22,652 nucleotides of DNA from a virus. The DNA lies in IMG/VR virus record IMGVR_UViG_3300018428_000211, positions 1-22,652 of that record; one strand, written 5' to 3'. A model generated the notes under the pieces. That model was not told the DNA's origin. It saw only the letters and a program-made list of their open reading frames with translations, and searched no databases. Shown here piece after piece: positions 1-11,992 of the stretch (position 1 is its first letter; every line of letters starts with the position of its first letter). The translations under genes and the position numbers were made by a program.

Positions 1-519
1 TATATACGTAACAAATATTCTACTGTAATAGAAATATTACCATCTGTAGTAAGATCGTTTGATAATGGAAATAAACATGGTAATAAATTGTTTGAATGGA
101 ATGATTTATTAAATGATATTGCTGAAGATGTAGACTATTTTAAAAATAATATTCATTTTTTACAAGGTGATTTATCGCACAAAGCATTTCATTATTCAGT
201 AATAGGTATTCATAATGGTAATGTTTATATGTCTCCATTTATATACGAAAATGCAGCAATATATAATGATGATTTTAAAATAGAAATTAATAATTCAATT
301 CATAAATCTATACTTAACTATAAAAATTATGTAGTTAATGAACAAATAGAAAACAGTCATAACAAAGAATGTATTACTTGCAAATATTTAAATATATGTA
401 GTAATAGATTAATACCTAAAGTTATGGATAATATATTTAATAACAGAAAAGAATGTATATTAAATAAACAAGTGATTGAACTTTTTGATAATGAGTATTA
501 TAATGCCAATAGTTACTGA
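1..519 (+). CDS. Radical SAM/SPASM-type protein, C-terminal part (5' end outside window)
   Basis: The frame is open from the first base, so this is the last 172 codons of a longer gene; the TTG at 88 is not a credible start. The C-terminus has a CxxCx5C...C cluster (CITCKYLNIC, then a further Cys near the end), as in the auxiliary iron-sulfur region of SPASM or twitch radical SAM proteins. It aligns by eye with the next gene along its whole visible length: ILPSVVRS matches LNPSFFRS, MSPFIY matches WTPFIY, and the Cys clusters line up. The two are therefore tandem paralogues, and the missing N-terminal half probably carries a CX3CX2C radical SAM motif. That last point is inference because the region is not in the window. 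The stop overlaps the start of the next gene, which suggests translational coupling. Confidence 0.7.
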   Translation, partial: YIRNKYSTVIEILPSVVRSFDNGNKHGNKLFEWNDLLNDIAEDVDYFKNNIHFLQGDLSHKAFHYSVIGIHNGNVYMSPFIYENAAIYNDDFKIEINNSIHKSILNYKNYVVNEQIENSHNKECITCKYLNICSNRLIPKVMDNIFNNRKECILNKQVIELFDNEYYNANSY

Positions 520-1522
520 TAATTTAAAACACTCACAAGCAGATAAAGACTTTAACTTATCCTTTGATAAAGGACATGAAATTAAAGTGCAATTTAATTG
601 TGAAGTATTATCTGGTTGTGAATTTAAATGTAAAGGTTGTTTTGTTAATAAAGTAGGATCTAATATGGGATCTTATGATAGATTAAACAAAGCAATTGAT
701 TTATTTAATGATAATGGATTTAGAGTTTCAACAATTAATATAGGTCCTACTGATTTATTTGGTAATAATAATATTGTTTCATTACTAAAAGATGAAACGT
801 TTAGAGAATGTTTAAGTAAAGTTACCACTATTCAATTTGTTACTACATTAGAAAAAGTAGATGATGAAGTCATAGACTTATTAAATAGTATTCCAAAGAA
901 AGATGGATTTATGTATGATGCAAATATTGCATTGCAATTACCTGTTGATTGGGATAAAATTGAAAGTAAACTAAATCTACTTAATAAATTTAAAGATGAT
1001 TTAAATTATTATATGGTTTATAATATGAGTAATGATGACGAATATAATAGCCAAGTACTTGAAATGGCTAAGTTAGTAAAAGAACGATTTAATTCATTAC
1101 TTACACTAAACCCTTCTTTCTTTAGATCTCCTAAATCAAAATTACAAAAGCATTTAATTAATAAATGGAAGCAATATGATTTTAGCGATGATTTATATCC
1201 TAAAACAATTATCGATCAAGCTCAAGGTGGATCATTAGAACTTAACTATACTTATTGTAATGAAAGATTTTTTTGGACTCCATTCATTTATGATATTGCA
1301 TTAATAGGAACATCTGAATTTGAAGTAAAAAATGAAAGCGATATTAATTCTTGGACTGAAATTAAAACAGATCAATTTATGGAGCAATTAGTTTATGCTC
1401 AAGAAACAAAAAACTGTGGTAATTGCCATAATCAAATGACTTGTATAGACAAAGGTGTATTATCTTATATGAAACATCATTCAATCACTTCGTGCGTGTT
1501 TCCCGGCGTAGTATCTTCCTAA
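491..1522 (+). CDS. Radical SAM protein with C-terminal SPASM/twitch-like Cys cluster
   Basis: Counted from the ATG at 491, the radical SAM 4Fe-4S motif CEFKCKGC (CX3CX2C) is at C43, C47 and C50, and a C-terminal auxiliary cluster is at C309, C312, C318 and C335. Such enzymes cleave S-adenosylmethionine reductively to a 5'-deoxyadenosyl radical; SPASM-type members commonly act on peptides or proteins. The substrate here is unknown. The start could be the ATG at 491 or at 503; both lie inside the upstream gene and neither has a clear Shine-Dalgarno, so coupling to that gene is likely. An upstream TTG at 476 extends the frame but is less likely. The 3' end overlaps the convergent minus-strand gene by 42 bases, leaving no room for a terminator between them. 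Confidence 0.88.
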   Translation: MSIIMPIVTDNLKHSQADKDFNLSFDKGHEIKVQFNCEVLSGCEFKCKGCFVNKVGSNMGSYDRLNKAIDLFNDNGFRVSTINIGPTDLFGNNNIVSLLKDETFRECLSKVTTIQFVTTLEKVDDEVIDLLNSIPKKDGFMYDANIALQLPVDWDKIESKLNLLNKFKDDLNYYMVYNMSNDDEYNSQVLEMAKLVKERFNSLLTLNPSFFRSPKSKLQKHLINKWKQYDFSDDLYPKTIIDQAQGGSLELNYTYCNERFFWTPFIYDIALIGTSEFEVKNESDINSWTEIKTDQFMEQLVYAQETKNCGNCHNQMTCIDKGVLSYMKHHSITSCVFPGVVSS

Positions 1523-2182
1523 GAAAGTACTTGGGTAATTATTCTGAAAAGCATCCCACTCTGTTTTTGGAATTAGATAATGTTCTAATTCAACCTTTTT
1601 ATCAGTCATAGGATAGATAGACATTATAGGAGTTCCATATTTTAATTGTACAGTGTATTCTTCTTCTTTAATAGGAAATACAAGGAACACATTAAGAGTA
1701 TGCTGATCTTTAAAATTAGCAATACCCGGCGATATTAATATATCATGTTTACGAAGATCTTCTGAGTAATGTATTTCTTTTAACATAAACTCTGTTCTAT
1801 CAGATCCTTCTATAGCCCACGGACCATATAGCTTAAATACTGTTCTACCAGGATAAAGTTCTTTTCCATATTGATAATCTTCATGCACACCACCACCAAT
1901 TCTGTTAAAACTTTCGATGGGCTCTGCAAGTTTTACTTTACCGTCTGGTTTTATATTAAATATAACATCAGACCATAATTTGAGTGTAATAGGTTTACGA
2001 ATATAATCTGCAACTCCTGGACAAGTCTTGATTGTTGGTACTGGAATATTTACTCCAGATCTAATATCAAACTTATGAGCAAAGTTTTTAATTTTTTTCC
2101 ACCAACTTGGAGGTTTAGTTTTGTATTCTAATTTTTGTAATTCAAATACACTCTTATCGTGTGTGTAACATTTCAACTTCAC
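1481..2182 (-). CDS. Uncharacterised protein with PPSWW and TCPGVADY motifs, last gene of the radical SAM operon
   Basis: A 233-residue protein with no signal peptide or membrane segment. Visible marks are PPSWWKK near residues 24-30, KTCPGVADY at 52-60 followed by LKLWSDV, and a beta-rich remainder with many aromatic residues. It resembles a family of unknown function found in marine phages and bacteria (possibly the DUF6065 type; this is from memory and unverified). The start is a GTG at 2182 with GGAGAAG seven bases upstream. It overlaps the preceding radical SAM gene by 29 bases and is the last gene of the minus-strand operon. The operon position suggests it serves the same pathway, but the sequence itself indicates no catalytic role. 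Its 3' end runs into the convergent plus-strand radical SAM gene. Confidence 0.75.
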   Translation of the reverse strand: MKLKCYTHDKSVFELQKLEYKTKPPSWWKKIKNFAHKFDIRSGVNIPVPTIKTCPGVADYIRKPITLKLWSDVIFNIKPDGKVKLAEPIESFNRIGGGVHEDYQYGKELYPGRTVFKLYGPWAIEGSDRTEFMLKEIHYSEDLRKHDILISPGIANFKDQHTLNVFLVFPIKEEEYTVQLKYGTPIMSIYPMTDKKVELEHYLIPKTEWDAFQNNYPSTFLGRYYAGKHARSD

Positions 2183-3221
2183 TTTTCTTCTCCATATAAT
2201 TAAACCACATACGCATTACACAATCTGGTAAATCGCGTTCTCGGTTTTTCCAATCCCATTGTGTATAACATCTAAATCCACATTTATTCCACCATTTACA
2301 TGATAAACAACCGTGCTCATCCATATAAGCTTGCATCATAGAAGCATTATCTTTTCTATTTAAAGGTGTATTAAAATCTTCTTTTGTATATCTATTCCAT
2401 CTACAATTTGATGTAGAATTATCTGGAAATATTGTTACTTTATTTAAAGCCATGCAATGCATGTGATTGCTACTTTTTTCTATCAAATCTTTCATAGGAT
2501 TTATATCAGGATATTTCCTATAAACAAATTTTAAAAATGCTAGGTACATACTATCAGATGGAATTAAATAATCAAAACCTTTATCTGGTATGTAATCATC
2601 AAAATAAAAATTATCAAACTTATTATAAAGATAATGAAAATATTCATCATCGTCAGCCATAAATTTTTTTATTGATGGAACTGTTGCAACCATATTAATT
2701 GATATAATATAATCTGCAAAATATTCTATATTATCTTGGTATGGTCCTTTTTGTGGTCGTCCATCAAAGTCATAAGAACAAATAATATATGAAGGAATAT
2801 TTGCTGCATTTAAATCATCTAATAATTTTTTAACTAAATCTTTTTTACTAAATTGAAATGATGTTACCCAAACAACTTTTATTTTGTGATTATACTTATC
2901 ATATAATTTTTTAATCTCAATAAGCAAATCATAATAAACATCGTATGCCCAGTCAGATATTCTATCTTGAAAAAGTTCTCCTCCCACCATGTTAATTTGG
3001 CAAGTTTCAACTCTTCCTTCCATTTTAATTAAATGTTCTTCTACTAATGGTATCTTAGAAAATATTTCTTCTCTAGATAATCCTACTGTAGATTTTTTAT
3101 CGTGATGACAAAAAGCGCAATTTAAATGACAGTTCTCAAATAAAGTTAATTCTATCTCACCTAATTCTGGTCTCTTAGGTTCTAATAAAACTTTTATTGG
3201 TTCACTTTGTTCGTAATCCAT
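2154..3221 (-). CDS. Radical SAM/SPASM domain protein
   Basis: Counted from the ATG at 3221 (355 aa), the radical SAM motif CHLNCAFC gives C31, C35 and C38. A conserved GGE (VGGEL) follows, where SAM-binding GGE motifs usually lie. The C-terminus has a SPASM-like cluster at C305, C308, C314, C318 and C334, preceded by a further Cys pair around CMALNK and NCRW. This architecture binds one SAM-cleaving and one or two auxiliary 4Fe-4S clusters; known relatives modify peptides or proteins. I chose 3221 over the longer frame start at 3287 because an AAGAAG Shine-Dalgarno-like stretch precedes 3221 and the overlap with the upstream small gene then falls to 20 bases, like other junctions in the operon. 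The substrate is unknown. Confidence 0.88.
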   Translation of the reverse strand: MDYEQSEPIKVLLEPKRPELGEIELTLFENCHLNCAFCHHDKKSTVGLSREEIFSKIPLVEEHLIKMEGRVETCQINMVGGELFQDRISDWAYDVYYDLLIEIKKLYDKYNHKIKVVWVTSFQFSKKDLVKKLLDDLNAANIPSYIICSYDFDGRPQKGPYQDNIEYFADYIISINMVATVPSIKKFMADDDEYFHYLYNKFDNFYFDDYIPDKGFDYLIPSDSMYLAFLKFVYRKYPDINPMKDLIEKSSNHMHCMALNKVTIFPDNSTSNCRWNRYTKEDFNTPLNRKDNASMMQAYMDEHGCLSCKWWNKCGFRCYTQWDWKNRERDLPDCVMRMWFNYMEKKSEVEMLHTR

Positions 3222-3609
3222 ATAACATTTCTTCTTTATAATATTCGTAAATGTCCGGAACCATTCCGTCATTTCGATCAAATTCACCTATTTGTCTAAG
3301 TATTGCATCGTATGTGCCTTCATCTTCAGAGTATGGTACAAAATACGGATCATTATTAAATAATAATTCTGGATCATCTAATACTTCGTAAAAATCTTCT
3401 CCATAATCTTCTGATAACCATGTTGCATAACAAATTGCAACCACATATGATTTAGCCGGATAAATCCATTCATCTACTTCTTCGTAAAAATGCATTACCG
3501 CGTCGTCTACTATATCATCTGATACAGTAATATCAACGTCATTTAAATCATCTTTAAATTCTGTATTAGCGAGATGATACGCTGCTTGTCTAGCTTTCCA
3601 ATCTTTCAT
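3202..3609 (-). CDS. Small acidic, tyrosine-rich protein embedded in the radical SAM operon
   Basis: A 135-residue protein I do not recognise. It is strongly acidic and aromatic: 14 tyrosines (about 10%), with acidic-aromatic runs such as HFYEEVDEWIYP, DYGEDFYEV and IYEYYKEE. It has no signal peptide, membrane segment, enzyme motif or Cys cluster (a single Cys, in AICYATW). It sits between two radical SAM genes and overlaps both by 20 bases, so it is very probably translated with them. It could be a substrate, a recruitment or scaffold protein, or an unrelated phage protein. The substrate idea is inference from position and composition only; the protein is longer than most RiPP precursors and has no obvious leader-core boundary. 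Confidence 0.8.
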   Translation of the reverse strand: MKDWKARQAAYHLANTEFKDDLNDVDITVSDDIVDDAVMHFYEEVDEWIYPAKSYVVAICYATWLSEDYGEDFYEVLDDPELLFNNDPYFVPYSEDEGTYDAILRQIGEFDRNDGMVPDIYEYYKEEMLYGLRTK

Positions 3610-4984
3610 ACGTAATATTTACACTTATTCGTGGTGTATCTCCTGTATAATTTTCTACCCTATGAAACCAAGTTATAGGAAAAGTTATTACCTTTCCTTT
3701 TTCGAATTCAAATGAACTAATGTTAGCATTATCATCCATAACTTTAAGTTGTCCACCTTGATTACTTTCTCCATCTATCCAAATAATTAAAGCATGTGTT
3801 CCTGGCATAACATTTTGATTACCGCCAGCGCCTTTTTCATTATGCCAATCAAAAGTATTTAGATACCCTTTATATATTGTTTTATTTAACCAACTATTTA
3901 ATATTTTTAATTTAAATCCTAAAGTTTTTTCTAATATTTCTTGTATAAATTCTGTTCCATTAACAATATCTAAAGGACCATCAACATTGTTATCTTTAAG
4001 ATTTTTTAGATCATTAAATATTGGATAAGAAATATCTATATCTTTAATTATAAGATTATTATATTTTAAAATAACGTTATTAATCTTATCATTATACCAA
4101 TCTAATAATCCTTTATAACCATTACATCCATTATCTAAATCTTTTACATATCTATAATGTTCTGTTAAACAGTTACCATAATATACACAGCTTTTACATA
4201 TATCAGATGTATTTTTATCTGGTTCTTGTTCAGCCCATTTTTTATATTCTTTATATGTATCTAATTCTAAAAAATATTCATTATCATTTTTATCAAATTC
4301 TAATACCGCATATTTTCCATTTGGAGTAATATAAACATGATCATTAGAAAAAGCATTATATCTTGCATCTAAAGAATTTCTTATATGATTCTCATTTATA
4401 AATTGGAATTTTTTTTCAATTGGACTTTCAATCCATTTTTTAACAAACTCTTCAAAATCTTTATGTGTAACATTATGAGCATTTGATTGATTAGTAGAGT
4501 AAGGTTTAATTTCAACTGTTTCTATTTTAGAACACATATTAAAAATTGATATCATTTCATCGACATCTTTTTCTAATACTTTTGGTGATGCTAATACTAA
4601 TATGAATAATGGCTTTTTTGATGCCATTATATTATTTAAAACAAACTGTTCTTTTTCTCTGGCAGAGAAATCATAAGACACTGAAATTTTAATATCGTCA
4701 TCATAGAAAAAATCAGGTAAAGCACTAAAATTAGTATTAATATTAATAACACCTTGATAATACTTTTTAATAACATTTTTAATTGAATAAAAATATTCTG
4801 GTGTTAATAAAGCTATTTCACCACCATATAAATCAATATGTTCAATAGGATCTTCTATATTACTAAGTAATTCATCTAATTTTTCTGGAGTAATTTTCTT
4901 TCTATCACTAAGTTGTTCTTTTGTAAGATAACAAAAGTCACATTTAAAATTACAATAGTAAGTAGGATTAATCGATAAATTCAT
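3590..4984 (-). CDS. Radical SAM-SPASM protein fused to a C-terminal 2OG-Fe(II) oxygenase domain
   Basis: A 464-residue protein with two catalytic modules. Residues 1 to about 290 are radical SAM/SPASM: CNFKCDFC gives C11, C15 and C18, a GGE lies at 54-56 (DLYGGEI), and the auxiliary Cys are C263, C266, C272 and C287. Residues about 300-464 resemble a 2-oxoglutarate/Fe(II) oxygenase. The predicted metal ligands are H381-x-E383 (DWHNE) and H441 (WFHRV), with R452 (TPRISVN) placed to bind the 2OG carboxylate, separated by GGQLKVMD and the GKVITFP strand typical of prolyl-4-hydroxylase-like folds. The first ligand pair is HxE rather than the commoner HxD. The two chemistries differ sharply: radical SAM clusters are usually oxygen-sensitive, whereas 2OG enzymes need O2. 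The start overlaps the upstream gene's end by 17 bases. I expect sequential modification of one substrate, which is inference. Confidence 0.87.
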   Translation of the reverse strand: MNLSINPTYYCNFKCDFCYLTKEQLSDRKKITPEKLDELLSNIEDPIEHIDLYGGEIALLTPEYFYSIKNVIKKYYQGVININTNFSALPDFFYDDDIKISVSYDFSAREKEQFVLNNIMASKKPLFILVLASPKVLEKDVDEMISIFNMCSKIETVEIKPYSTNQSNAHNVTHKDFEEFVKKWIESPIEKKFQFINENHIRNSLDARYNAFSNDHVYITPNGKYAVLEFDKNDNEYFLELDTYKEYKKWAEQEPDKNTSDICKSCVYYGNCLTEHYRYVKDLDNGCNGYKGLLDWYNDKINNVILKYNNLIIKDIDISYPIFNDLKNLKDNNVDGPLDIVNGTEFIQEILEKTLGFKLKILNSWLNKTIYKGYLNTFDWHNEKGAGGNQNVMPGTHALIIWIDGESNQGGQLKVMDDNANISSFEFEKGKVITFPITWFHRVENYTGDTPRISVNITYERLES

Positions 4985-6020
4985 AAGGTATACTTTCGTT
5001 AATATATGGTGTTACACTATTTGGATCTAATCCATTAATTTCTAATATTCTAGGTGCAAGAGTTTTCATATGCTTACAATGATCTTCTACAATTCCTTCT
5101 CTTTTCATATCTCGTATTGTTTTTTTACAACCATTACATATCTTAAACATAGGACATGTATAGCATGCCATTTTCATTGTTTGAATATGAGGATCGTTTT
5201 GTAAAGGTGTTTCAAATCCTCCTTGCATTTCTTTTTCAAAATCAATAGAATAATCTTTATCATCACCAAAAGCACCACAGCTATAATAGTCTCCACCAGG
5301 ATTCATTGCTCTTATTCCAATATCGCATTCTCTTAATTGTGGACAAGTAGTATTTTCTCCAATAAGACGTTTAGCCATTTGCATAGTATTCCACTCATAA
5401 TCTACTAAACCCATATCATATATTTTAACATACATCTCATATATTTTACTAAGTCTATATGTAGATCCTTGCACACCACTTGCCATTGCATAATTTAATT
5501 TACACGTTACGCCCATCTTCTTTGCGAGCTCTACATTTTTTAATGCATCTTTTTCATTTTCATCTACAATAACAGAAATAAAGTCTGGTCTATAACCACA
5601 ATATTTAAGCATAGCATCTGAACATTTCCAAAAATCTTCTTCACTAAATTCGGAATAATCACCTTTAAGGCGTCCTCCTCCATATTGAAATGATGTACAT
5701 ATACCTACTCTTTCGTTATTAAATAAGTCTACCCACTTCTCTGGTTTTTTATAAAAAGGCCACAAGTTTGTTGTAAGTGATACTGTTGCGGGTAAATCGT
5801 GCTCATCTAAATAATTAATAATCTTCCAATAATATTCTGGTTCTACCATTAAAGGATCACCACCATTTACAATAATAGTATTAGTTTCGGGAAATCTTTC
5901 TAAAAATTTAAAAATATAATCATGACTTAATAACCCAGCATTATTCGGATCAATATCTGTTGAAGAACAAAATGTGCATTTAAAATTACAAACTTCGGTT
6001 GGTTTAATAATTAAATCCAT
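4968..6020 (-). CDS. Radical SAM/SPASM domain protein
   Basis: A 350-residue protein beginning MDLIIKPTEVC, the usual first strand leading into the cluster-binding loop. The radical SAM motif CNFKCTFC gives C11, C15 and C18; VNGGDP is the GGE-type motif with Asp in place of Glu. The SPASM region includes the YYSCGAF Cys and a CxxCx5CxxC...C cluster at C286, C289, C295, C298 and C315. The start has a good AAAGGAAAAAGA ribosome site and overlaps the upstream gene by 10 bases. SPASM family members are known to act on ribosomal peptides or on enzymes. Which substrate this one uses is not evident, and it lacks an obvious N-terminal peptide-recognition (RRE) domain. Confidence 0.9.
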   Translation of the reverse strand: MDLIIKPTEVCNFKCTFCSSTDIDPNNAGLLSHDYIFKFLERFPETNTIIVNGGDPLMVEPEYYWKIINYLDEHDLPATVSLTTNLWPFYKKPEKWVDLFNNERVGICTSFQYGGGRLKGDYSEFSEEDFWKCSDAMLKYCGYRPDFISVIVDENEKDALKNVELAKKMGVTCKLNYAMASGVQGSTYRLSKIYEMYVKIYDMGLVDYEWNTMQMAKRLIGENTTCPQLRECDIGIRAMNPGGDYYSCGAFGDDKDYSIDFEKEMQGGFETPLQNDPHIQTMKMACYTCPMFKICNGCKKTIRDMKREGIVEDHCKHMKTLAPRILEINGLDPNSVTPYINESIPYEFID

Positions 6021-7042
6021 TCTTTTTCCTTTGCTAATTCTACCATAAGCGATTTAGGTGCAGGGCATACTCCATCCATCCATTTTAATTGATGACAATC
6101 AGAATGACATAAATTAAATACAGGACATTCATAACATTTGGGATTTCTTAAATGTATTTCATTATCTATAGCAGTCATTCTTTTTGGACATACTTTTACA
6201 TCAGGAGCTGGCTCATCTATATGACCATAAAAATCAGTAGGAGCTGAATTAGGACAGCCTGCTATTGTTCCATCTGCGTTTATAGTAAATAATTTTTGTT
6301 CACAATCTCTACAAAACGTTCCACTACGTGTTTCGTTATAATCAAATTTATTATATACAGTATTTAAGAAAGTATTTTTTACTTTGTGATGACGAGTTGT
6401 TTGATGCATCAACATCCAAAAATTATCCAGTTGTTTATTATGCGGAAATATTTCTAAATTAATTGTAGCATTGCCATTATGAGTTAATCTTTCATATGAT
6501 AATTCTTCAATACCTAAAGATTCCATATAGTTTGCAATTTTAATTGGCTCCATATTAACAACATCATTTGATACAGATACAAAACATTTAACTGCAAGAC
6601 CTTCATCTACTAATTTTTTTACATTATCTTCCCATAATTTAAGTTGTTTATCATTAGTAAATCTTATCTTCGGATCCCAAGATGTTCCTATAAAATCTTG
6701 CTTAACAATATCTTTAAAGAAATCTATGTATTCTTGTTTTAACTTATAAACTAAGTTTGTTGTAATGCCTATTGTTAATCTATCATCCCACTGAGATCTT
6801 ACTATTTTTACAAACTTTTTAAGATCCTCTAATGGAGCAAGCATAGGCTCTCCACCATGAAATTCAAAGTGAACTCTATTATCTCCAGTATCTAATTGGT
6901 TACACCAATCTGCAGTCTTTATAGGATCAAAATATATTTTTCTACCTTTAGTACCAGAAGTAAAACAATGATCACAATTTAAATTGCAAGTTTCAGTTGT
7001 TTTTACGTATACTACTAAGTGTTTCTGTGTCGCTAATGCCAT
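6011..7042 (-). CDS. Radical SAM/SPASM protein resembling anaerobic sulfatase-maturating enzymes
   Basis: A 343-residue protein with the most complete SPASM region of the set. CNLNCDHC gives C19, C23 and C26, and FHGGEPML is a textbook GGE motif. Further Cys occur at FCRDCEQ, AGCPN and KVCPKR, then CYECPVFNLCHSDC (C303, C306, C312, C316) and C326. Two auxiliary 4Fe-4S clusters are likely. The layout is like anSME-type enzymes, which oxidise Cys or Ser to formylglycine, but also like many peptide-modifying SPASM enzymes; the exact reaction cannot be told. The ATG at 7042 lies 50 bases inside the upstream cupin gene, with AAAAAGG somewhat far upstream (about 15 bases), so reading through from the upstream gene may help initiation. 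Confidence 0.9.
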   Translation of the reverse strand: MALATQKHLVVYVKTTETCNLNCDHCFTSGTKGRKIYFDPIKTADWCNQLDTGDNRVHFEFHGGEPMLAPLEDLKKFVKIVRSQWDDRLTIGITTNLVYKLKQEYIDFFKDIVKQDFIGTSWDPKIRFTNDKQLKLWEDNVKKLVDEGLAVKCFVSVSNDVVNMEPIKIANYMESLGIEELSYERLTHNGNATINLEIFPHNKQLDNFWMLMHQTTRHHKVKNTFLNTVYNKFDYNETRSGTFCRDCEQKLFTINADGTIAGCPNSAPTDFYGHIDEPAPDVKVCPKRMTAIDNEIHLRNPKCYECPVFNLCHSDCHQLKWMDGVCPAPKSLMVELAKEKEWI

Positions 7043-7457
7043 AAGAAATCATTAATGCCTTTTTACTATTAATTGCTCTATGCTTTGTATTTGCTGGAAT
7101 GAATAATGATTCACCTGGATTTAATGTAACTCTAGCTCCACGCACTTCCAAATCTTTTTCACCATCTAAACATTCTATTATTACATCAACTGGGTCTTGA
7201 TGAAGTTTAAAAGTTGGCCCATTATCTTGATTATAAAACACATGCGCCGTTTTGTCAACTATTTTTAATACTTTTTCATATTGTTCTACTTTGATTGTAT
7301 TTTTTTCAGCAATAAGTATTCCTACCTTTGCAATATATGCATGGTAATCTGTTTGATCTAAGTAATGCTGAAGGCCTTCAATATCAATATAAGATACATC
7401 ATGATTTTCAAAACACTCATTAGAGTATAGCCATTGTTCAAAGTCTGAGAAATTCAT
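6993..7457 (-). CDS. JmjC/cupin-fold protein, putative Fe(II)-dependent oxygenase
   Basis: A 154-residue protein, the first gene of the minus-strand operon. The C-terminal half has cupin strands: FKLHQDPVDVII, then LNPGESLFIPANTKHRAIN. H86-x-D88 and H126 form a facial metal triad in JmjC/cupin_8 order, and PGESLFIP...H is the usual second cupin motif. This fits an Fe(II)/2OG hydroxylase acting on proteins or small molecules, but a non-catalytic or other metal cupin is possible: the domain is short and a 2OG-binding Lys or Arg is not clear. The start is the ATG at 7457; the frame extends only three bases further, to a TTG. A perfect sigma70 promoter on the same strand lies within this gene (7230-7258), so downstream genes may be transcribed without it. 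Confidence 0.78.
   Translation of the reverse strand: MNFSDFEQWLYSNECFENHDVSYIDIEGLQHYLDQTDYHAYIAKVGILIAEKNTIKVEQYEKVLKIVDKTAHVFYNQDNGPTFKLHQDPVDVIIECLDGEKDLEVRGARVTLNPGESLFIPANTKHRAINSKKALMISYGISDTETLSSIRKNN
7230..7258 (-). promoter_or_regulatory. Perfect sigma70 consensus promoter inside the first operon gene
   Basis: On the minus strand TTGACA (7258-7253) is followed by exactly 17 bases and then TATAAT (7235-7230), matching both hexamers and the optimum spacing. It points into the radical SAM genes, with a predicted start near 7223. It lies in the codons for VDKTAHVFYNQDNG of the cupin gene. This suggests transcription of the radical SAM genes by host polymerase early in infection. Confidence 0.7.
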
Positions 7458-7474
7458 CAATTTTCCATTACAAC

Positions 7475-7503
7475 TTGTTGATAATTATATATATAATTAT
7501 AAT
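7475..7503 (+). promoter_or_regulatory. Divergent intergenic region: candidate promoter and 20-bp perfect palindrome
   Basis: The 69-base gap between the divergent cupin and oxygenase genes holds a perfect 20-bp palindrome at 7481-7500 (ATAATTATAT/ATATAATTAT). It provides a TATAAT on the plus strand (7492-7497) and on the minus strand (7489-7484). A better-spaced plus-strand candidate is TTGTTG (7475-7480), 17 bases, TATAAT (7498-7503), just before the AAAGGAG ribosome site of the oxygenase gene. The -35 matches only 3 of 6. The palindrome could be a symmetric promoter or an operator; AT-richness makes chance a real alternative. Confidence 0.4.
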
Positions 7504-7526
7504 ATCATGAAAGGAGTGATCTATCA

Positions 7527-8087
7527 ATGAATTTTTATAATCTGTGGCCAACTAAATTAAGTATTGGTCATTTTCATGTCGAAGGTTTATCAGACTATAT
7601 TCTTACAAATTATGATCTTAATACACCAGAGAATGGTGAATTAGCTGGTAAAAATTTTTTCGATAATGATTCAAAACCAATTAAAGAATTTAAAAAAGTA
7701 GTTTATAATTGTTTTGATGAATATTTACAGAAAACTATAAATAAGTCTATAAGTGATTTTGCAGGTTATCGAACAAACGCTTGGATAACAAAAATGACAA
7801 ATACGGGAATGAATTTTCATAATCATCGTGGTAATCTTTTATCAGCCGTTTTTTATCCACTTGCTGAAGTAACAGATGCTGGTGGGTCGATTGTTTTTCA
7901 TGATCCAAGATTTAACGCAAATAGAGGTTATCCACCACCTTTTTATCATTTATTTGAAAAGGAAGAATATATACCAGAAACAGGAGATGTTTTTATTTTC
8001 CCGAGTTTCTTGTATCATTCAGTAAGTCCTTATTTTTCTGATTATAGAATTTGCATTCCTGTAGATTTACAGTTGTTCACTGAGTAA
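7527..8087 (+). CDS. 2OG-Fe(II) oxygenase superfamily protein (TIGR02466-like)
   Basis: A 186-residue protein starting MNFYNLWPTKLSIG, the typical opening of TIGR02466-like phage oxygenases. The jelly-roll core shows HNH at 98-100 followed by LLSAVFYP, then GGSIVFHDPR at 119-128, GDVFIFPSFLYHSV (H164 as distal metal ligand) and YRICIPVD (R174 for 2OG). The usual family order is HxH/HxD, GG-strand, FPS-H, R, so the ligands look intact. Such proteins are frequent in marine T4-like phages; substrates are largely unknown, with protein or nucleotide hydroxylation proposed. AAAGGAG lies 10 bases before the ATG. It is transcribed divergently from the radical SAM operon across a short shared promoter region and may supply a further oxidation step to it (inference). 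Confidence 0.88.
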   Translation: MNFYNLWPTKLSIGHFHVEGLSDYILTNYDLNTPENGELAGKNFFDNDSKPIKEFKKVVYNCFDEYLQKTINKSISDFAGYRTNAWITKMTNTGMNFHNHRGNLLSAVFYPLAEVTDAGGSIVFHDPRFNANRGYPPPFYHLFEKEEYIPETGDVFIFPSFLYHSVSPYFSDYRICIPVDLQLFTE

Positions 8088-8943: not shown

Positions 8944-9999
8944 ATGCATGATATGCATATGGGTGGTTTGGCGACCTATGCCTTAAAAAGAGGCGGAACG
9001 TTACACCCAATTATTCTACCTAAAGAAGTATTAGGTAATGAAACTGGAATTATGAACCCATCTATCTTCCAACACAAAGGGAAGATTCTTCTAAATATCC
9101 GTCACATTAACTATATACTCTATCATAGTGAAGGAAAGAAATTCCCTCATCAGTGGGGACCGCTTGTATACGTACATCCCGAAAACGACGTAACTCTTAC
9201 TACACATAATGTAATGTGCGAGTTAGATGATAATATGAACGTCAAAAACGCCCAACGTATTAATATGGCTCTTGATACAGGTAAACCTACTTGGAACTTT
9301 GTTGGTTTAGAAGATTGTCGTTTATTTTCTTGGCATGATAAATTATATTTGTGTGGTGTTCGTAGAGATGCATACGATGATAAAGGCAAAGGTCGTATGG
9401 AGATGGCAGAAATTGATTTCATTGATGGAGAATGGAGAGAAGTATCTCGTAATCCTATTCCAGCTCCAGGCGATGATAGCTCATATTGTGAAAAAAATTG
9501 GATGCCTATTAATGACATGGAAGATCATTTTGTTAAATGGTGTAATCCTATTCAAATTGTAAAATATGATATTGAAGAAGGTACAACAACAGAAACATAT
9601 AGAGATAAATCTCCAAGAGCGCCATTTCCTAGAGATTTTAGAGGTGGTTCACAAGTCATTAGAATTGGTGACAACCAAAGAATGGCATTTGTCCACGAAA
9701 CAACTTTATTAAAAGATCCATTCGGTAGAAAAGATGGTGATTATGCTCATCGAATTCTTATTTGGGATGACGATTGGAATTTAATTCATGCAACTAAACC
9801 ATTTCATTTTATGGGAACTTATTACGATCATGTAACTAATACTGATTATAATATTGAATTTGTTACTGGTATGACAATTAGAAATAATGATATTTTAATT
9901 TCATTTGGTTGGCAAGATAATGCTTCATTTATTCTTAAATTACCAATGAAAGTATTTAATGAATTTCTAGTTAATTATGGAGATCATAATGCAATTTAA
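8944..9999 (+). CDS. Five-bladed beta-propeller glycosidase/phosphorylase-like protein (GH130/DUF377 type)
   Basis: A 351-residue protein with landmarks of the GH130 and related GH43-like five-bladed propellers: MNPSIFQHKGKILL with a conserved Arg (about R53), GLEDCRLFSWHDKLYL at 121-136, EKNWMPI at 183-189, then FRGGSQVI and FVHETTL blades. In GH130 the GLED and EKNW motifs line the active site and the enzyme phosphorolyses mannosides; here GLED-C-R replaces GLED-P-R. The substrate cannot be assigned. The start at 8944 follows GGAGGTGAT directly (only four bases after GGAGG); ATGs at 8953 and 8959 are alternatives. Its neighbours are an FkbM methyltransferase and a sugar nucleotidyltransferase, so a role in host surface glycan or virion glycan processing is plausible. 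Confidence 0.75.
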   Translation: MHDMHMGGLATYALKRGGTLHPIILPKEVLGNETGIMNPSIFQHKGKILLNIRHINYILYHSEGKKFPHQWGPLVYVHPENDVTLTTHNVMCELDDNMNVKNAQRINMALDTGKPTWNFVGLEDCRLFSWHDKLYLCGVRRDAYDDKGKGRMEMAEIDFIDGEWREVSRNPIPAPGDDSSYCEKNWMPINDMEDHFVKWCNPIQIVKYDIEEGTTTETYRDKSPRAPFPRDFRGGSQVIRIGDNQRMAFVHETTLLKDPFGRKDGDYAHRILIWDDDWNLIHATKPFHFMGTYYDHVTNTDYNIEFVTGMTIRNNDILISFGWQDNASFILKLPMKVFNEFLVNYGDHNAI

Positions 10000-11230
10000 G
10001 AATATGAAATTATTAAATGACGTTGTTCTTGATTATGATAATCCAGATAAAATTTATAAATTAGCACGCGAGTACGATAAGCTAGAACAAGGTGCCGCCG
10101 CGGCTGGCTTTTATCTACGTGCTGCTGATATGTCAGAAGGTAAAACATTTGAAGAGAAATGGCTTCAATATAAATGTATGATATTACAAGCTTTCATTTA
10201 TGAAAGAAATGAAAATAGAAACATAAGTGTTTTAGGTTTTTTAGAAATGGCAATTGAAACTTTACCTGATAGACCTGAAGCATATTATTTTATTTCAGAT
10301 TTATATGAAAGAAGAAATCAATGGCGTAATAGTTTAGTATATTCTAAAATCGGAATACAATGTTACGAAAATAAAGAAATCGATTCTATTGATAATGATG
10401 TAAATTATCCTGGTTTAGAAGCATTAAAATTTTTATATGCAAAAGCTAAATGGAAAACAGACGGTAGAGATGAATCGAAAAATTTATTATTTGATTTAAA
10501 ATATAAACATAAATTAGATAAAAATTTAGAATTAGAAGTTGATAATTATCTAAATCAAGTAAAATATCCAAGTACTTTACCATTCACTCCAGATTTATTA
10601 GAAAGATATAAATTTCCATTTGATGGTATAGAAAATGTAGAGAGTAATTATTCTCGCCATTTCCAAGATATGTTTGTATTATCTGTTACTAATGGTAAAA
10701 GAAATGGAACATTTGTAGAGATTGGTTCTGGACATCCTAAACTTTTTAATAATACATTATTACTTGAAAAAGAATTTGGGTGGAAAGGTTTATCGATAGA
10801 TATATCAGAAAGAATGTGCCATCAACATTCAAGAATGAGATCTACAGGTGTTATGATTGCAGATGCAAATAATTTAGATTATAATGAATTATTTAATTCT
10901 CATTGCTTTGAAAATAAAATAGATTTCTTAAGAATTAATGCTGAGCTCGCTTCTCTTAATACTTTACAAAAAATGCCATTTAATAAATTTGAATTTGGTA
11001 TTATACAGTTTCAACATAATAATTGTTGGTGGAATAATAATTTTAGAGAAGAATCTAGAAAGATCTTAAAAGATATTGGATATATATTAATAGTACCAGA
11101 TGTTGCAGTAGATCATTCATCTAATTATGAAGATTGGTGGATTCATCCTATGTATGTACAAAATGCTCGCACAATGAAAGGTAAAGACGGAATTAATTTT
11201 GCTTGGGATTATATGATGGAGAAATTATAA
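9989..11230 (+). CDS. TPR-repeat protein with C-terminal FkbM-like methyltransferase domain
   Basis: From the ATG at 9989 (413 aa) the N-terminal 20-185 region is helical with TPR-like units (AREYDKLEQGAAAAGFYLRA; PEAYYFISDLYERRNQWRNS). Residues about 238-390 form a Rossmann methyltransferase: GTFVEIGSGHPK is the SAM-binding loop, GWKGLSIDIS ends strand 2 with the acidic residue, and DFLRINAE and GYILIVPD follow. This is the FkbM arrangement, usually O-methylating sugars. VEIGSG replaces the common VEIGAN, and the usual DxEG-like segment is N-A-E. An upstream in-frame ATG at 9977 is less likely because GGAG at 9979-9982 is well placed for 9989. The start overlaps the propeller gene, and the next gene begins directly after the stop. 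A glycan O-methylation role is inference. Confidence 0.8.
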   Translation: MQFKNMKLLNDVVLDYDNPDKIYKLAREYDKLEQGAAAAGFYLRAADMSEGKTFEEKWLQYKCMILQAFIYERNENRNISVLGFLEMAIETLPDRPEAYYFISDLYERRNQWRNSLVYSKIGIQCYENKEIDSIDNDVNYPGLEALKFLYAKAKWKTDGRDESKNLLFDLKYKHKLDKNLELEVDNYLNQVKYPSTLPFTPDLLERYKFPFDGIENVESNYSRHFQDMFVLSVTNGKRNGTFVEIGSGHPKLFNNTLLLEKEFGWKGLSIDISERMCHQHSRMRSTGVMIADANNLDYNELFNSHCFENKIDFLRINAELASLNTLQKMPFNKFEFGIIQFQHNNCWWNNNFREESRKILKDIGYILIVPDVAVDHSSNYEDWWIHPMYVQNARTMKGKDGINFAWDYMMEKL

Positions 11231-11992
11231 ATGAAAGTAGTTTTAGTTACTGGAGGATTTGATCCAATTCACTCTGGTCATATTGCATATTTTAGAGCAG
11301 CAAAAAAATTAGGTGATAAACTTGTCGTTGGATTAAATTCAGATGAGTGGTTGGAGCGTAAAAAAGGTAGAGCATTTATGCCTTGGAATGAGCGTCTTGC
11401 TATTGTTAATAATTTAGAAATGGTAGATGAAACGTTTACATTTTTAGATGATGATAATACAGCAAAAAACTTTATACTACAAGTAAGAGCTCATTATCCT
11501 GACGCTCATTTAATATTTGCAAACGGCGGTGACCGTACATCGGATAATATTCCAGAAATGGATGTAGAAGATAATAATATTACATTTGAATTTGCGGTGG
11601 GAGGAGACGATAAAAAGAACTCTTCAAGTTGGATTTTATCAGAATGGGATAAACCAAAGACTCAAAGACACTGGGGATATTATAGAAATTTAGATCAAAA
11701 TGGTCATTGGAAAGTAAAAGAACTTACTATTGCAAAAGATAAAAATTTATCAGATCAAAGACATTTTAAAAGATCTGAACATTGGCATATCGTTGATGGA
11801 GATCTTATGATGAATTTAGAATTCGAAGATGGTCTTAAAACTTCTCAGATCTATCATTCTGGTGATAGTATTGATATTCCTGTTAATACTTGGCATTACG
11901 CTGTTAATGTCGGATCTGATCCAGTTAAAGTAATCGAAGTTTGGATGGGATCTGAATTATCAGAAGAAGACATAGAAAGAAGAACACTATGA
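11231..11992 (+). CDS. Cytidylyltransferase-like domain fused to a ManC-type cupin
   Basis: A 253-residue two-domain protein. Residues 1 to about 137 are an HxGH nucleotidyltransferase: GGFDPIHSGH puts H14 and H17 in the nucleotide site, NERLAIV follows, and KNSSSWIL at 129-136 corresponds to the ISSTxI motif. Residues about 147-245 are a cupin like the C-terminal isomerase half of mannose-1-phosphate guanylyltransferases: HFKRSEHWHIVDGD (H178, H184, H186) and IPVNTWHYAVN (H222) give the metal site. The first domain would join a nucleotide to a sugar- or polyol-phosphate, as in glycerol-3-phosphate cytidylyltransferase or heptose adenylyltransferase; the cupin may isomerise or bind the sugar. 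It starts directly after the methyltransferase stop, without a separate promoter. Confidence 0.85.
   Translation: MKVVLVTGGFDPIHSGHIAYFRAAKKLGDKLVVGLNSDEWLERKKGRAFMPWNERLAIVNNLEMVDETFTFLDDDNTAKNFILQVRAHYPDAHLIFANGGDRTSDNIPEMDVEDNNITFEFAVGGDDKKNSSSWILSEWDKPKTQRHWGYYRNLDQNGHWKVKELTIAKDKNLSDQRHFKRSEHWHIVDGDLMMNLEFEDGLKTSQIYHSGDSIDIPVNTWHYAVNVGSDPVKVIEVWMGSELSEEDIERRTL

What the first reader, a model, noticed from the sequence alone, without database searches (positions are those of the whole stretch)
1..8087. Dense phage-encoded cluster of radical SAM/SPASM enzymes with three Fe(II)-type oxygenases
Seen: five CX3CX2C radical SAM domains (genes at 491, 2154, 3590, 4968, 6011), a sixth inferred from a truncated paralogue at 1-519, an embedded 2OG oxygenase domain, a JmjC/cupin and a TIGR02466-like oxygenase, all in 8 kb of a T4-like phage. 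Known: SPASM radical SAM enzymes typically modify peptides or proteins. Inference: this is a multi-step protein or peptide modification pathway, perhaps acting on a host protein, a phage-made peptide or the virion. I know of no described phage system of this make-up.
Basis: partly seen in the sequence, partly recalled or inferred. Interest (0 to 1): 0.92.

Follow-up and report, generated by a model that had tools for sequence, protein, structure and literature searches.

The report
Phage pathway modifying a virion-protein tail
A family of phages, and some predatory bacteria, carries a conserved set of radical-SAM enzymes beside a small protein with a repeated cysteine-histidine tail; the enzymes probably remodel that tail, which would be an unrecognised way for a virus to chemically equip its own particle.

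Summary
The window holds five radical-SAM (rSAM) genes plus the end of a sixth, a cupin and a 2OG-Fe(II) oxygenase. A 99.84%-identical longer record of the same phage has nine rSAM genes.

The likely substrate lies about 5.8 kb beyond the window edge. It is two tandem genes for small proteins ending in (Cys-His-x-Ser)3-Arg-Gly-Arg-Arg-stop ("CH proteins"). They directly follow a 3194-aa appendage-type protein. A DNA scan for this tail alone, blind to rSAM, found rSAM genes nearby in 104 of 113 viral loci and 15 of 16 genome-contig loci, against 0 of 72 chance-motif controls. All six isolate phages found with the rSAM core encode a CH protein next to it. Nine of 368 genomes in the phylum of predatory Bacteriovorax carry the tail, each beside rSAM genes.

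In phage Atu_ph07 the CH protein is gp170. The published virion proteome names CDS 170-215 as a cluster rich in virion proteins.

Best reading: a RiPP-like maturation pathway for the C-terminal tail of a virion, fibre-associated protein. Shown: genes, synteny, motif, co-occurrence. Inferred: that the tail is the substrate, its chemistry, its place in the virion.

Earlier papers noted rSAM-rich phages; in the passages I read, none named a substrate.

The parts
1..519 (+). A: C-terminal part of a sixth radical-SAM/SPASM-like protein, cut by the window edge
   Evidence: phrog_31457 2e-9, TIGR04085 E 0.001, below cut-off; full 380-aa gene with CX3CX2C on the 99.84% identical record L001/L118
476..1522 (+). 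B: radical-SAM protein (start probably at about 503)
   Evidence: CEFKCKGC motif, C-terminal CX2CX5C; phrog_31457 5.9e-9; Pfam Radical_SAM E 0.029, below cut-off
1481..2182 (-). C: 233-aa protein of unknown function, present in a subset of relatives
   Evidence: phrog_7084 5.3e-12; 35 ORFs over the loci held
2154..3287 (-). D: radical-SAM protein, part of the conserved core
   Evidence: phrog_1802 1.6e-18; CHLNCAFC
3202..3609 (-). E: 135-aa conserved core protein of unknown function; confident mostly helical model with no PDB match
   Evidence: phrog_20737 5.2e-42; 13 invariant columns in 61 sequences; pLDDT 89.8; no Foldseek match with E <= 0.001
3590..4984 (-). F: radical-SAM protein with a C-terminal extension resembling a 2OG-Fe(II) oxygenase (weak)
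   Evidence: PF04055 1.2e-7; PF13759 E 0.0021 on 416-456, below cut-off; phrog_1802 6.2e-37 and phrog_274 1e-5 on 344-460; tblastn matches in isolate phages cover only residues 1-301
4968..6020 (-). G: radical-SAM protein with SPASM-type cysteines
   Evidence: PF04055 3e-9; phrog_1802 3e-51; 54-60% identical in isolate jumbo phages
6011..7042 (-). H: radical-SAM/SPASM protein; its homologue is the gene directly upstream of 83 of 163 distinct CH genes
   Evidence: phrog_1802 1.4e-57; TIGR04085 at cut-off
6993..7460 (-). I: cupin-domain protein overlapping H
   Evidence: Cupin_2 1.4e-9, JmjC_2 1.1e-5
7527..8087 (+). J: 2OG-Fe(II) oxygenase
   Evidence: PF13759 8.6e-12; phrog_81 1.6e-24

Best explanation
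The cluster is a RiPP-like post-translational modification pathway carried in the tail-fibre (host recognition) region of the phage. Its substrate is a small phage protein, the CH protein, whose extreme C-terminus is (Cys-His-x-Ser)3-Arg-Gly-Arg-Arg. The rSAM/SPASM enzymes (core H, D, G, F; A/B-type enzymes mostly where there are two CH proteins) act in sequence on the repeated C-H-x-S units. Conserved partners X1 and E probably assist, and the cupin and 2OG oxygenases add oxidative steps. The tail stays on the protein and becomes part of the virion, probably with a fibre or fibre-like appendage, where it would help contact the host envelope. Shown here: the genes, their motifs, the conserved order, the CH tail and its close linkage to the rSAM set in phages and in some genomes of the phylum of predatory Bacteriovorax. 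Inferred from linkage: that the tail is the substrate. Inferred from one published proteome's cluster boundary and from neighbours: that the CH protein is in the virion. Speculative: the chemistry. Three H-x-S units suggest His-Ser crosslinks of the cyclophane type, with Cys as a further target.
For: (1) A motif-only DNA scan of viral contigs, blind to rSAM, gave 119 loci not held before. 113 have a CH ORF ending exactly at the motif, and 104 of these have an rSAM gene in the held DNA (98 of 105 after merging loci with an identical CH protein); 7 of the 9 without have under 4.3 kb held. (2) In genome contigs 15 of 16 CH loci have an rSAM gene, against 0 of 72 loci whose motif match was chance, at similar mean lengths (7.5 and 7.3 kb). 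(3) The reverse test: 144 loci found with queries H, G and F fall into 66 sequence groups. 31 have CH in the held DNA, 7 more on the full record, and one has a variant tail. (4) 163 distinct CH proteins keep residues the pattern did not demand: Ser at -13, -9 and -5 in 150, 131 and 145, Gly at -3 in 149. Cys and His codons are mixed (TGT/TGC, CAT/CAC), so selection is on the protein. (5) X1 is present in 102 of 102 phage CH loci with at least 4 kb held downstream (78 of 78 merged), and in 0 of 72 controls. (6) Merged groups with 12 kb or more held: one-CH groups most often have 4 rSAM (27 of 55), two-CH groups 9 (8 of 13) or 6 (3 of 13); A/B-type rSAM occur in 12 of 55 one-CH and 12 of 13 two-CH groups. 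(7) All six isolate phages with an H homologue encode CH directly after H. (8) Atu_ph07 gp170 is the CH protein, and PMC6102473 section 29 gives CDS 170-215 as one of three clusters encoding most MS-detected virion proteins. (9) In the window's own phage the two CH genes directly follow, one base apart, a 3194-aa protein on the same strand. Its C-terminal domain is found upstream on the same strand in 58 of 79 phage CH loci with 4 kb held there (49 of 62 merged) and in 0 of 72 controls; the gene before the 3194-aa protein matches tail-fibre families (1.6e-33). (10) In 6 of 10 loci of the Bacteriovorax type a protein matching the prepilin/Peptidase_S74 fusion of L276 lies nearby. (11) Relatives add a tryptophan-halogenase-family enzyme and more 2OG oxygenases above cut-off, and B12-binding-type rSAMs below cut-off.
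Against: No modification has been observed; the enzyme-substrate link rests on gene linkage. That gp170 is in the virion is read from the boundary of a published gene cluster. That range also spans the rSAM gp171 and the cupin-like gp172; the peptide table (Supplementary Table S5) could not be opened, and gp170 is not named in the main text. CH N-terminal halves differ widely between subfamilies, and neither the CH model nor the E model matched a known fold. The 3194-aa neighbour matches only PHROGs of unknown function (best phrog_22593), so 'fibre' is an inference, and 21 of 79 phage CH loci with 4 kb upstream lack its domain. X1 was found in only 8 of 16 genome-contig CH loci (stretches of at most 8 kb) and 8 of 10 wider predator-type loci. 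No PqqD-like recognition domain was hit by Pfam in A-J. HxsB/HxsC-type models are far below their cut-offs. Two CH loci with 8.6 and 10.7 kb held (L224, L256) show no rSAM, and in 27 of 66 rSAM groups no tail was seen, all on fragments. The CH genes lie outside the window.
Confidence: 0.68

Rival explanations
1. The cluster makes or modifies sugars, lipopolysaccharide or a small molecule for the infected host (an auxiliary metabolic or glycan pathway); the CH protein is an accessory.
For: Neighbouring genes in the window include a nucleotidyltransferase/mannose-6-phosphate-isomerase fusion (11231-11992). Pelagimyophage host recognition clusters are rich in LPS genes (PMC7029224). A metabolic role was suggested for the rSAM-rich Campylobacter phages (PMC2853527).
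Against: The neighbours M, N and O were not found in the held DNA of several relatives with the core, for example L121, L137, L140 and the isolate loci L354-L357. The CH tail and, in phages, X1 are the constant companions. The top three NCBIfam hits of G and the top seven of H, though far below cut-off, are peptide or protein maturases.
Confidence: 0.12
2. The CH protein is a classical RiPP precursor: its modified tail is cleaved off and released as a small toxin or signal (a phage bacteriocin) rather than kept on the virion.
For: Short gene next to rSAM/SPASM enzymes, a conserved C-terminal core, and extra tailoring enzymes.
Against: The proteins are long (mostly 120-300 aa). Apart from the self-processing or chaperone domains Peptidase_S74 and Peptidase_G2 of appendage proteins, no peptidase or exporter turned up among the neighbour genes that I scanned with Pfam, though many neighbours were not scanned. 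Atu_ph07 gp170 opens a cluster rich in MS-detected virion proteins. Appendage-type genes adjoin.
Confidence: 0.12
3. The (CHxS)3 tail is not a substrate but a metal- or iron-sulfur-binding or redox element, either a tip metal site like the His-rich iron sites of some phage spikes and fibres (recalled) or a cofactor carrier for the rSAM enzymes.
For: Alternating Cys and His is a good metal-ligand pattern; the tail is nearly invariant.
Against: It does not explain why up to nine rSAM enzymes accompany it, nor why A/B-type rSAM go with the second CH gene. The conserved Ser and RGRR have no role in it.
Confidence: 0.1

Closest known systems
rSAM/SPASM RiPP maturation systems (e.g. His-Xaa-Ser HxsA/HxsB/HxsC; cyclophane-forming FxsB, GrrM, YhhB; DarE, DynA, PapB)
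   Same: Small genetically linked protein with a repeated short core; rSAM/SPASM enzymes beside it; H-x-S units as in His-Xaa-Ser; weak profile similarity of F, G and H to these maturases
   Different: All scores far below family cut-offs; the CH proteins scanned have no NCBIfam or Pfam hit; most often four and up to nine rSAM per locus; substrate probably a virion protein; no exporter or leader peptidase seen among the genes scanned
rSAM-rich Campylobacter phages CP220/CPt10 (PMC2853527, passages read)
   Same: T4-like phage with 11-12 rSAM genes, five in an exchangeable module
   Different: CP220 is in the collection but no place in it was returned by tblastn with H, G, F or the FLC6 D homologue; no CHx2CHx2CH in its first 50 kb (the rest not examined); the described module includes a putative glycine amidinotransferase; authors suggested metabolic benefit
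Aeromonas jumbo phage 332-Vera (PMC12390700, passages read)
   Same: Eight rSAM genes inside the structural gene cluster; compared in that paper with pPa_SNUABM_DT01, which has the CH system
   Different: In the passages read only the number was remarked on; genome not examined here
rSAM cassettes in the host recognition cluster of pelagimyophages (PMC7029224, passages read)
   Same: Same genomic region, between VrlC and the neck genes, among tail fibres
   Different: No substrate or mechanism proposed in the passages read
Phage and predator appendage proteins with S74 or Peptidase_G2-type C-terminal domains
   Same: A Peptidase_S74 protein (L276, L353) and one protein with a sub-cut-off Peptidase_G2 match (L096) lie near CH genes
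   Different: No rSAM-modified partner for them turned up in my ten literature searches, none of which used these domain names as terms

Membership tests
Radical-SAM superfamily | CX3CX2C [4Fe-4S] motif in a radical-SAM domain | tested here: met
   Present in B, D, F, G, H and in the full-length A on L118; 610 of 618 distinct family members over 280 aa; profile hits, B and D weak in Pfam
SPASM-domain peptide/protein maturases | C-terminal SPASM domain (TIGR04085) with auxiliary-cluster cysteines | tested here: inconclusive
   H meets TIGR04085 (27.1 against 27), G 20.8 and A 19.4 below, B, D, F no hit; CX2CX5C spacing in all six
His-Xaa-Ser (Hxs) RiPP system | HxsA precursor and HxsB/HxsC maturases at family cut-offs | tested here: not met
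   HxsC 18.7 (F) and 24.5 (G) against 267.9; HxsB 29.5 (H) against 370; four CH proteins scanned without NCBIfam hit
RiPP pathway (general) | Ribosomal precursor with conserved core linked to maturation enzymes | tested here: met
RiPP pathway (general) | Demonstrated modification of the core | not testable with these tools
   needs mass spectrometry
RiPP pathway (general) | Leader removal and release of a mature peptide | tested here: inconclusive
   No leader peptidase or exporter among the neighbour genes scanned; not all neighbours were scanned
RiPP pathway (general) | RRE (PqqD-like) recognition domain | tested here: inconclusive
   No such Pfam hit in A-J at E <= 1, nor in the X1 and X2 proteins scanned at E <= 0.05 or 0.01; distant RREs could be missed
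Virion structural protein (CH protein) | Detected in purified particles | tested here: inconclusive
   Atu_ph07 gp170 is the first CDS of the range CDS 170-215 given as a cluster rich in MS-detected virion proteins; peptide table not readable, gp170 not named in the text
2OG-FeII_Oxy_5, PF13759 (J) | Curated Pfam cut-off | tested here: met
   45.8 against 27
TIGR02466 (J) | Curated NCBIfam cut-off | tested here: not met
   33.1 against 62.5

The most novel reading that the evidence does not exclude
Phages and some genomes of the phylum of predatory Bacteriovorax share an unrecognised class of genetically encoded, radical-chemistry-modified protein tail, (C-H-x-S)3-RGRR. It is mounted at the tip of their fibres or pili and made by a dedicated set of up to nine rSAM enzymes. 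The covalently crosslinked tail is the working end that contacts or breaches the Gram-negative envelope, shared by viruses and bacterial predators facing the same barrier.
Probability: 0.3. Interest if true: 0.97.

Novelty: new variant of a known kind. Interest (0 to 1): 0.88.

Why it matters
If right, it gives a class of rSAM-rich phage clusters, noted before but unexplained, a substrate and a testable function. It would extend radical-SAM maturation from secreted peptides and enzymes to a virus particle. It also points to chemistry that phages and some bacteria of a predatory phylum both use, perhaps at their host-facing appendages. The substrate motif is short, nearly invariant and open to mass spectrometry in existing isolates (Phosso, Atu_ph07, pPa_SNUABM_DT01), so the question is directly testable, and the motif is a simple marker for finding such systems in metagenomes.

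Tried and rejected
Sought a known fold for the CH protein (model pLDDT 79) and for E (pLDDT 89.8) with Foldseek against PDB, and for CH also against BFVD: nothing with E <= 0.001. Looked for the CH N-terminal half in phage records by tblastn: only noise for the L121 protein, only close relatives for FLC6, so in these tests only the tail is common across lineages.

Looked for DNA-level relatives of window 1-3609 among phage records: none. Tested whether the second partner X2 of the window-type phage (365 aa) is homologous to X2 of other clusters: not detectably (hhalign probabilities 5.8% and 18.4%), so X2 is not claimed as universal. U184 of the predator loci and the phage appendage domain were not joined by iterative search (0 shared members), so I do not claim they are homologous.

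A tree of H proteins (82 sequences, 12 from Bacteriovorax-phylum-type loci) did not place those 12 in one clade; direction of transfer is open.

Considered: that rSAM loci without CH refute the link. Of 66 sequence groups, 27 showed neither the motif nor the variant. 22 of these records are under 18 kb and were not checked one by one for where they are cut. The five longer ones (L009, L012, L077, L120, L125) end 1.2-5 kb from the matched gene on the side where CH lies in mapped relatives (coordinates; maps).

Dropped before counts: 6 of 119 motif-scan loci whose CH ORF did not meet the end-at-stop rule; L140, L175 and L358, duplicates of Atu_ph07, from the neighbour count; 5 of 48 short CH proteins from the modelled alignment; about a quarter of the 84 E proteins listed from the modelled alignment of 61. 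One search kept the best 80 of 259 confirmed matches. Counts are not de-duplicated by contig; one search gives merged counts.


Full report
WHAT IS IN THE WINDOW. Genes, in order: A (1-519, end of a sixth rSAM), B (rSAM), C (phrog_7084), D (rSAM), E (phrog_20737), F (rSAM with a weak 2OG-like extension), G (rSAM), H (rSAM/SPASM), I (cupin), J (2OG-Fe(II) oxygenase). Then come two DUF7936 proteins, M, N and a nucleotidyltransferase/mannose-6-phosphate-isomerase fusion (O). After these are a head-tail adaptor, head closure, tail sheath stabiliser, a 1327-aa protein with tail-fibre matches, terminase and tail sheath. The rSAM block therefore lies near the neck genes of a T4-like phage. The pelagimyophage paper calls the region between VrlC and neck gene gp14 the host recognition cluster and reports rSAM cassettes there (PMC7029224, passages read). 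The gp13/gp14/gp15 labels in my scripts are from recalled T4 gene order; one search supports the functions.

LARGER COPY. Two IMG/VR records hold the same phage (99.84% identity over 14,984 bases for L118). Beyond window position 1, record 3300023105_000036 (L118, and L390 from the same record, G404) carries the rest of A, three more B-type rSAM genes, X1 (262 aa) and a 365-aa protein. Then come two complete tandem CH genes (127 and 126 aa), and, one base further, a 3194-aa protein on the same strand. The whole set has nine rSAM genes. The nearer CH gene lies about 5.8 kb outside the window (L118 20814-21197; window position 1 is L118 14984). The gene before the 3194-aa protein matches tail-fibre families (1.6e-33); the 3194-aa protein itself matches phrog_22593, unknown function.

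THE TAIL. CH proteins end in C-H-x-S-C-H-x-S-C-H-x-S-R-G-R-R followed at once by the stop codon. In the viral motif-scan loci 136 of 138 in-frame occurrences end exactly at the stop. Among 163 distinct proteins the positions not demanded by the pattern are also conserved, and the Cys and His codons are mixed. The CH proteins scanned match phrog_35144 (unknown function) and have no Pfam or NCBIfam hit.

LINKAGE, BOTH WAYS. From the motif: 104 of 113 viral loci (98 of 105 merged) and 15 of 16 genome-contig loci carry an rSAM of these families, against 0 of 72 chance-motif control loci. From the rSAM side: 144 loci fall into 66 sequence groups. 31 have CH in held DNA, 7 more have it on the full record, and L139 has a variant tail. 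The other 27 are on fragments: 22 under 18 kb, and five longer records that end 1.2-5 kb from the matched gene on the CH side. CH is directly downstream of an H homologue for 83 of 163 distinct CH genes. X1 is in 102 of 102 phage CH loci with at least 4 kb downstream (78 of 78 merged) and in 0 of 72 controls, but in only 8 of 16 of the shorter genome-contig loci. Merged two-CH groups have more rSAM genes than one-CH groups, the extra ones being A/B-type: 12 of 13 against 12 of 55.

ISOLATES. Of 50,697 phage records, seven (six phages) match H and the same seven match G and F: Atu_ph07 (two records), Phosso, FLC6, FLC8, SURPRISE13 and pPa_SNUABM_DT01. All six phages have the CH tail in the next gene after H, annotated as hypothetical protein.

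VIRION. In Atu_ph07 the CH protein is FDI40_gp170 (121118-122008). Attai et al. 2018 (PMC6102473; section 29 and passages read) report 131 proteins by MS in particles, most of them encoded in CDS 31-76, CDS 170-215 and CDS 284-329. The second range begins exactly at the CH gene. It also spans the rSAM gp171 and the cupin-like gp172, so being inside it proves nothing; that it starts at gp170 suggests that gp170 itself was detected. I take this as suggestive, indirect evidence; the peptide table was not readable here and gp170 is not named in the text.

APPENDAGES. The C-terminal domain shared by the L002 1501-aa protein, Atu_ph07 gp176 and, in the window's phage, the 3194-aa protein (4.8e-46) is upstream on the same strand in 58 of 79 phage CH loci with at least 4 kb of upstream DNA (49 of 62 merged; 0 of 72 controls). 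One member resembles Peptidase_G2, below cut-off.

PREDATORS. Nine of 368 genomes in the phylum of a Bacteriovorax genome have the tail motif, each beside genes of these rSAM families. Titles seen include Bacteriovorax, Bacteriovoracaceae, Bdellovibrionaceae and Halobacteriovoraceae; that these groups are predators is recalled. With L139, ten such loci were mapped: X1 in 8, and in 6 a protein matching the L276 prepilin/Peptidase_S74 fusion by phmmer, the L276 locus itself included. Pfam confirms S74 in L276 and L353; the prepilin motif is above cut-off only in L276. The system is thus rare in that phylum and its direction of transfer is open.

MECHANISM. SPASM rSAM enzymes commonly form crosslinks in peptides (established knowledge of the class; PMC8326336, passages read). 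H-x-S is the unit of the His-Xaa-Ser systems of Haft and Basu (as cited in PMC9062424, passages read). I therefore propose stepwise radical crosslinking at the three C-H-x-S units, with oxidation by the cupin and 2OG enzymes. X1 and E are the best candidates for substrate handling, because X1 goes with CH and E is a core gene. Relatives add a tryptophan-halogenase-family enzyme (1.1e-72) and B12-binding-type rSAMs (below cut-offs), which would fit peptide tailoring. The order of steps and the bonds are unknown.

PRIOR WORK. Ten full-text searches led to reports of rSAM genes in phages: CP220/CPt10 (PMC2853527), 332-Vera (PMC12390700), pelagimyophages (PMC7029224), FLC6 annotation (PMC8066314) and RP12/RP31 (PMC5468394). 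In the passages read, none names a substrate or the tail; a jumbo-phage overview (PMC7824862) has no 'radical SAM' in its main text. The library lacks most subscription papers and bioRxiv, so this does not prove absence from print.

VERDICT. rSAM maturation is a known kind of system; a virus-borne set of up to nine enzymes acting on a probable virion protein tail is a new variant of it, possibly a new class.

Noticed in passing
window 11231-11992: Fusion of a cytidylyltransferase-like domain (5.7e-14) and a mannose-6-phosphate-isomerase C-terminal cupin (1.7e-21) in one phage gene, found next to N and M in many marine relatives.
   Followed up: no
window 8944-9999 and 9977-11230: Two large genes (M, N) with no Pfam hit at E <= 0.1, side by side in the mapped relatives that have them; N has a weak glycosyltransferase-family PHROG match.
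   Followed up: no
L028 16717-18057: A tryptophan-halogenase family protein (1.1e-72) inside the rSAM/CH cluster of a phage contig, a possible halogenation step.
   Followed up: partly
L060 6638-8554 and L096 7803-9494: Proteins with weak (below cut-off) B12-binding and radical-SAM matches inside the cluster.
   Followed up: partly
L355 18403-18927: Dihydrofolate reductase gene (PF00186 1.3e-46) inside the cluster of Burkholderia phage SURPRISE13, next to a second gene annotated as dihydrofolate reductase, as also in FLC6.
   Followed up: no
L139 6715-7323: Variant tail ...CHSNHCSHSNHGSRGRR in a locus with prepilin/S74-like neighbours; the spacing of C and H changes while GSRGRR is kept.
   Followed up: partly
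L276 5955-7142, L353 284-1525: Prepilin-type N-terminus (above cut-off in L276, just below in L353) fused to the tail-fibre chaperone Peptidase_S74 in Bacteriovorax and a genome of the same phylum; a pilus-fibre chimera worth study in its own right.
   Followed up: partly
window 3590-4984: F carries an extra 160-aa oxygenase-like extension not covered by its matches in the isolate phages.
   Followed up: partly
L390 909-10493: A 3194-aa gene directly before the two CH genes in the window's own phage, matching only PHROGs of unknown function.
   Followed up: partly
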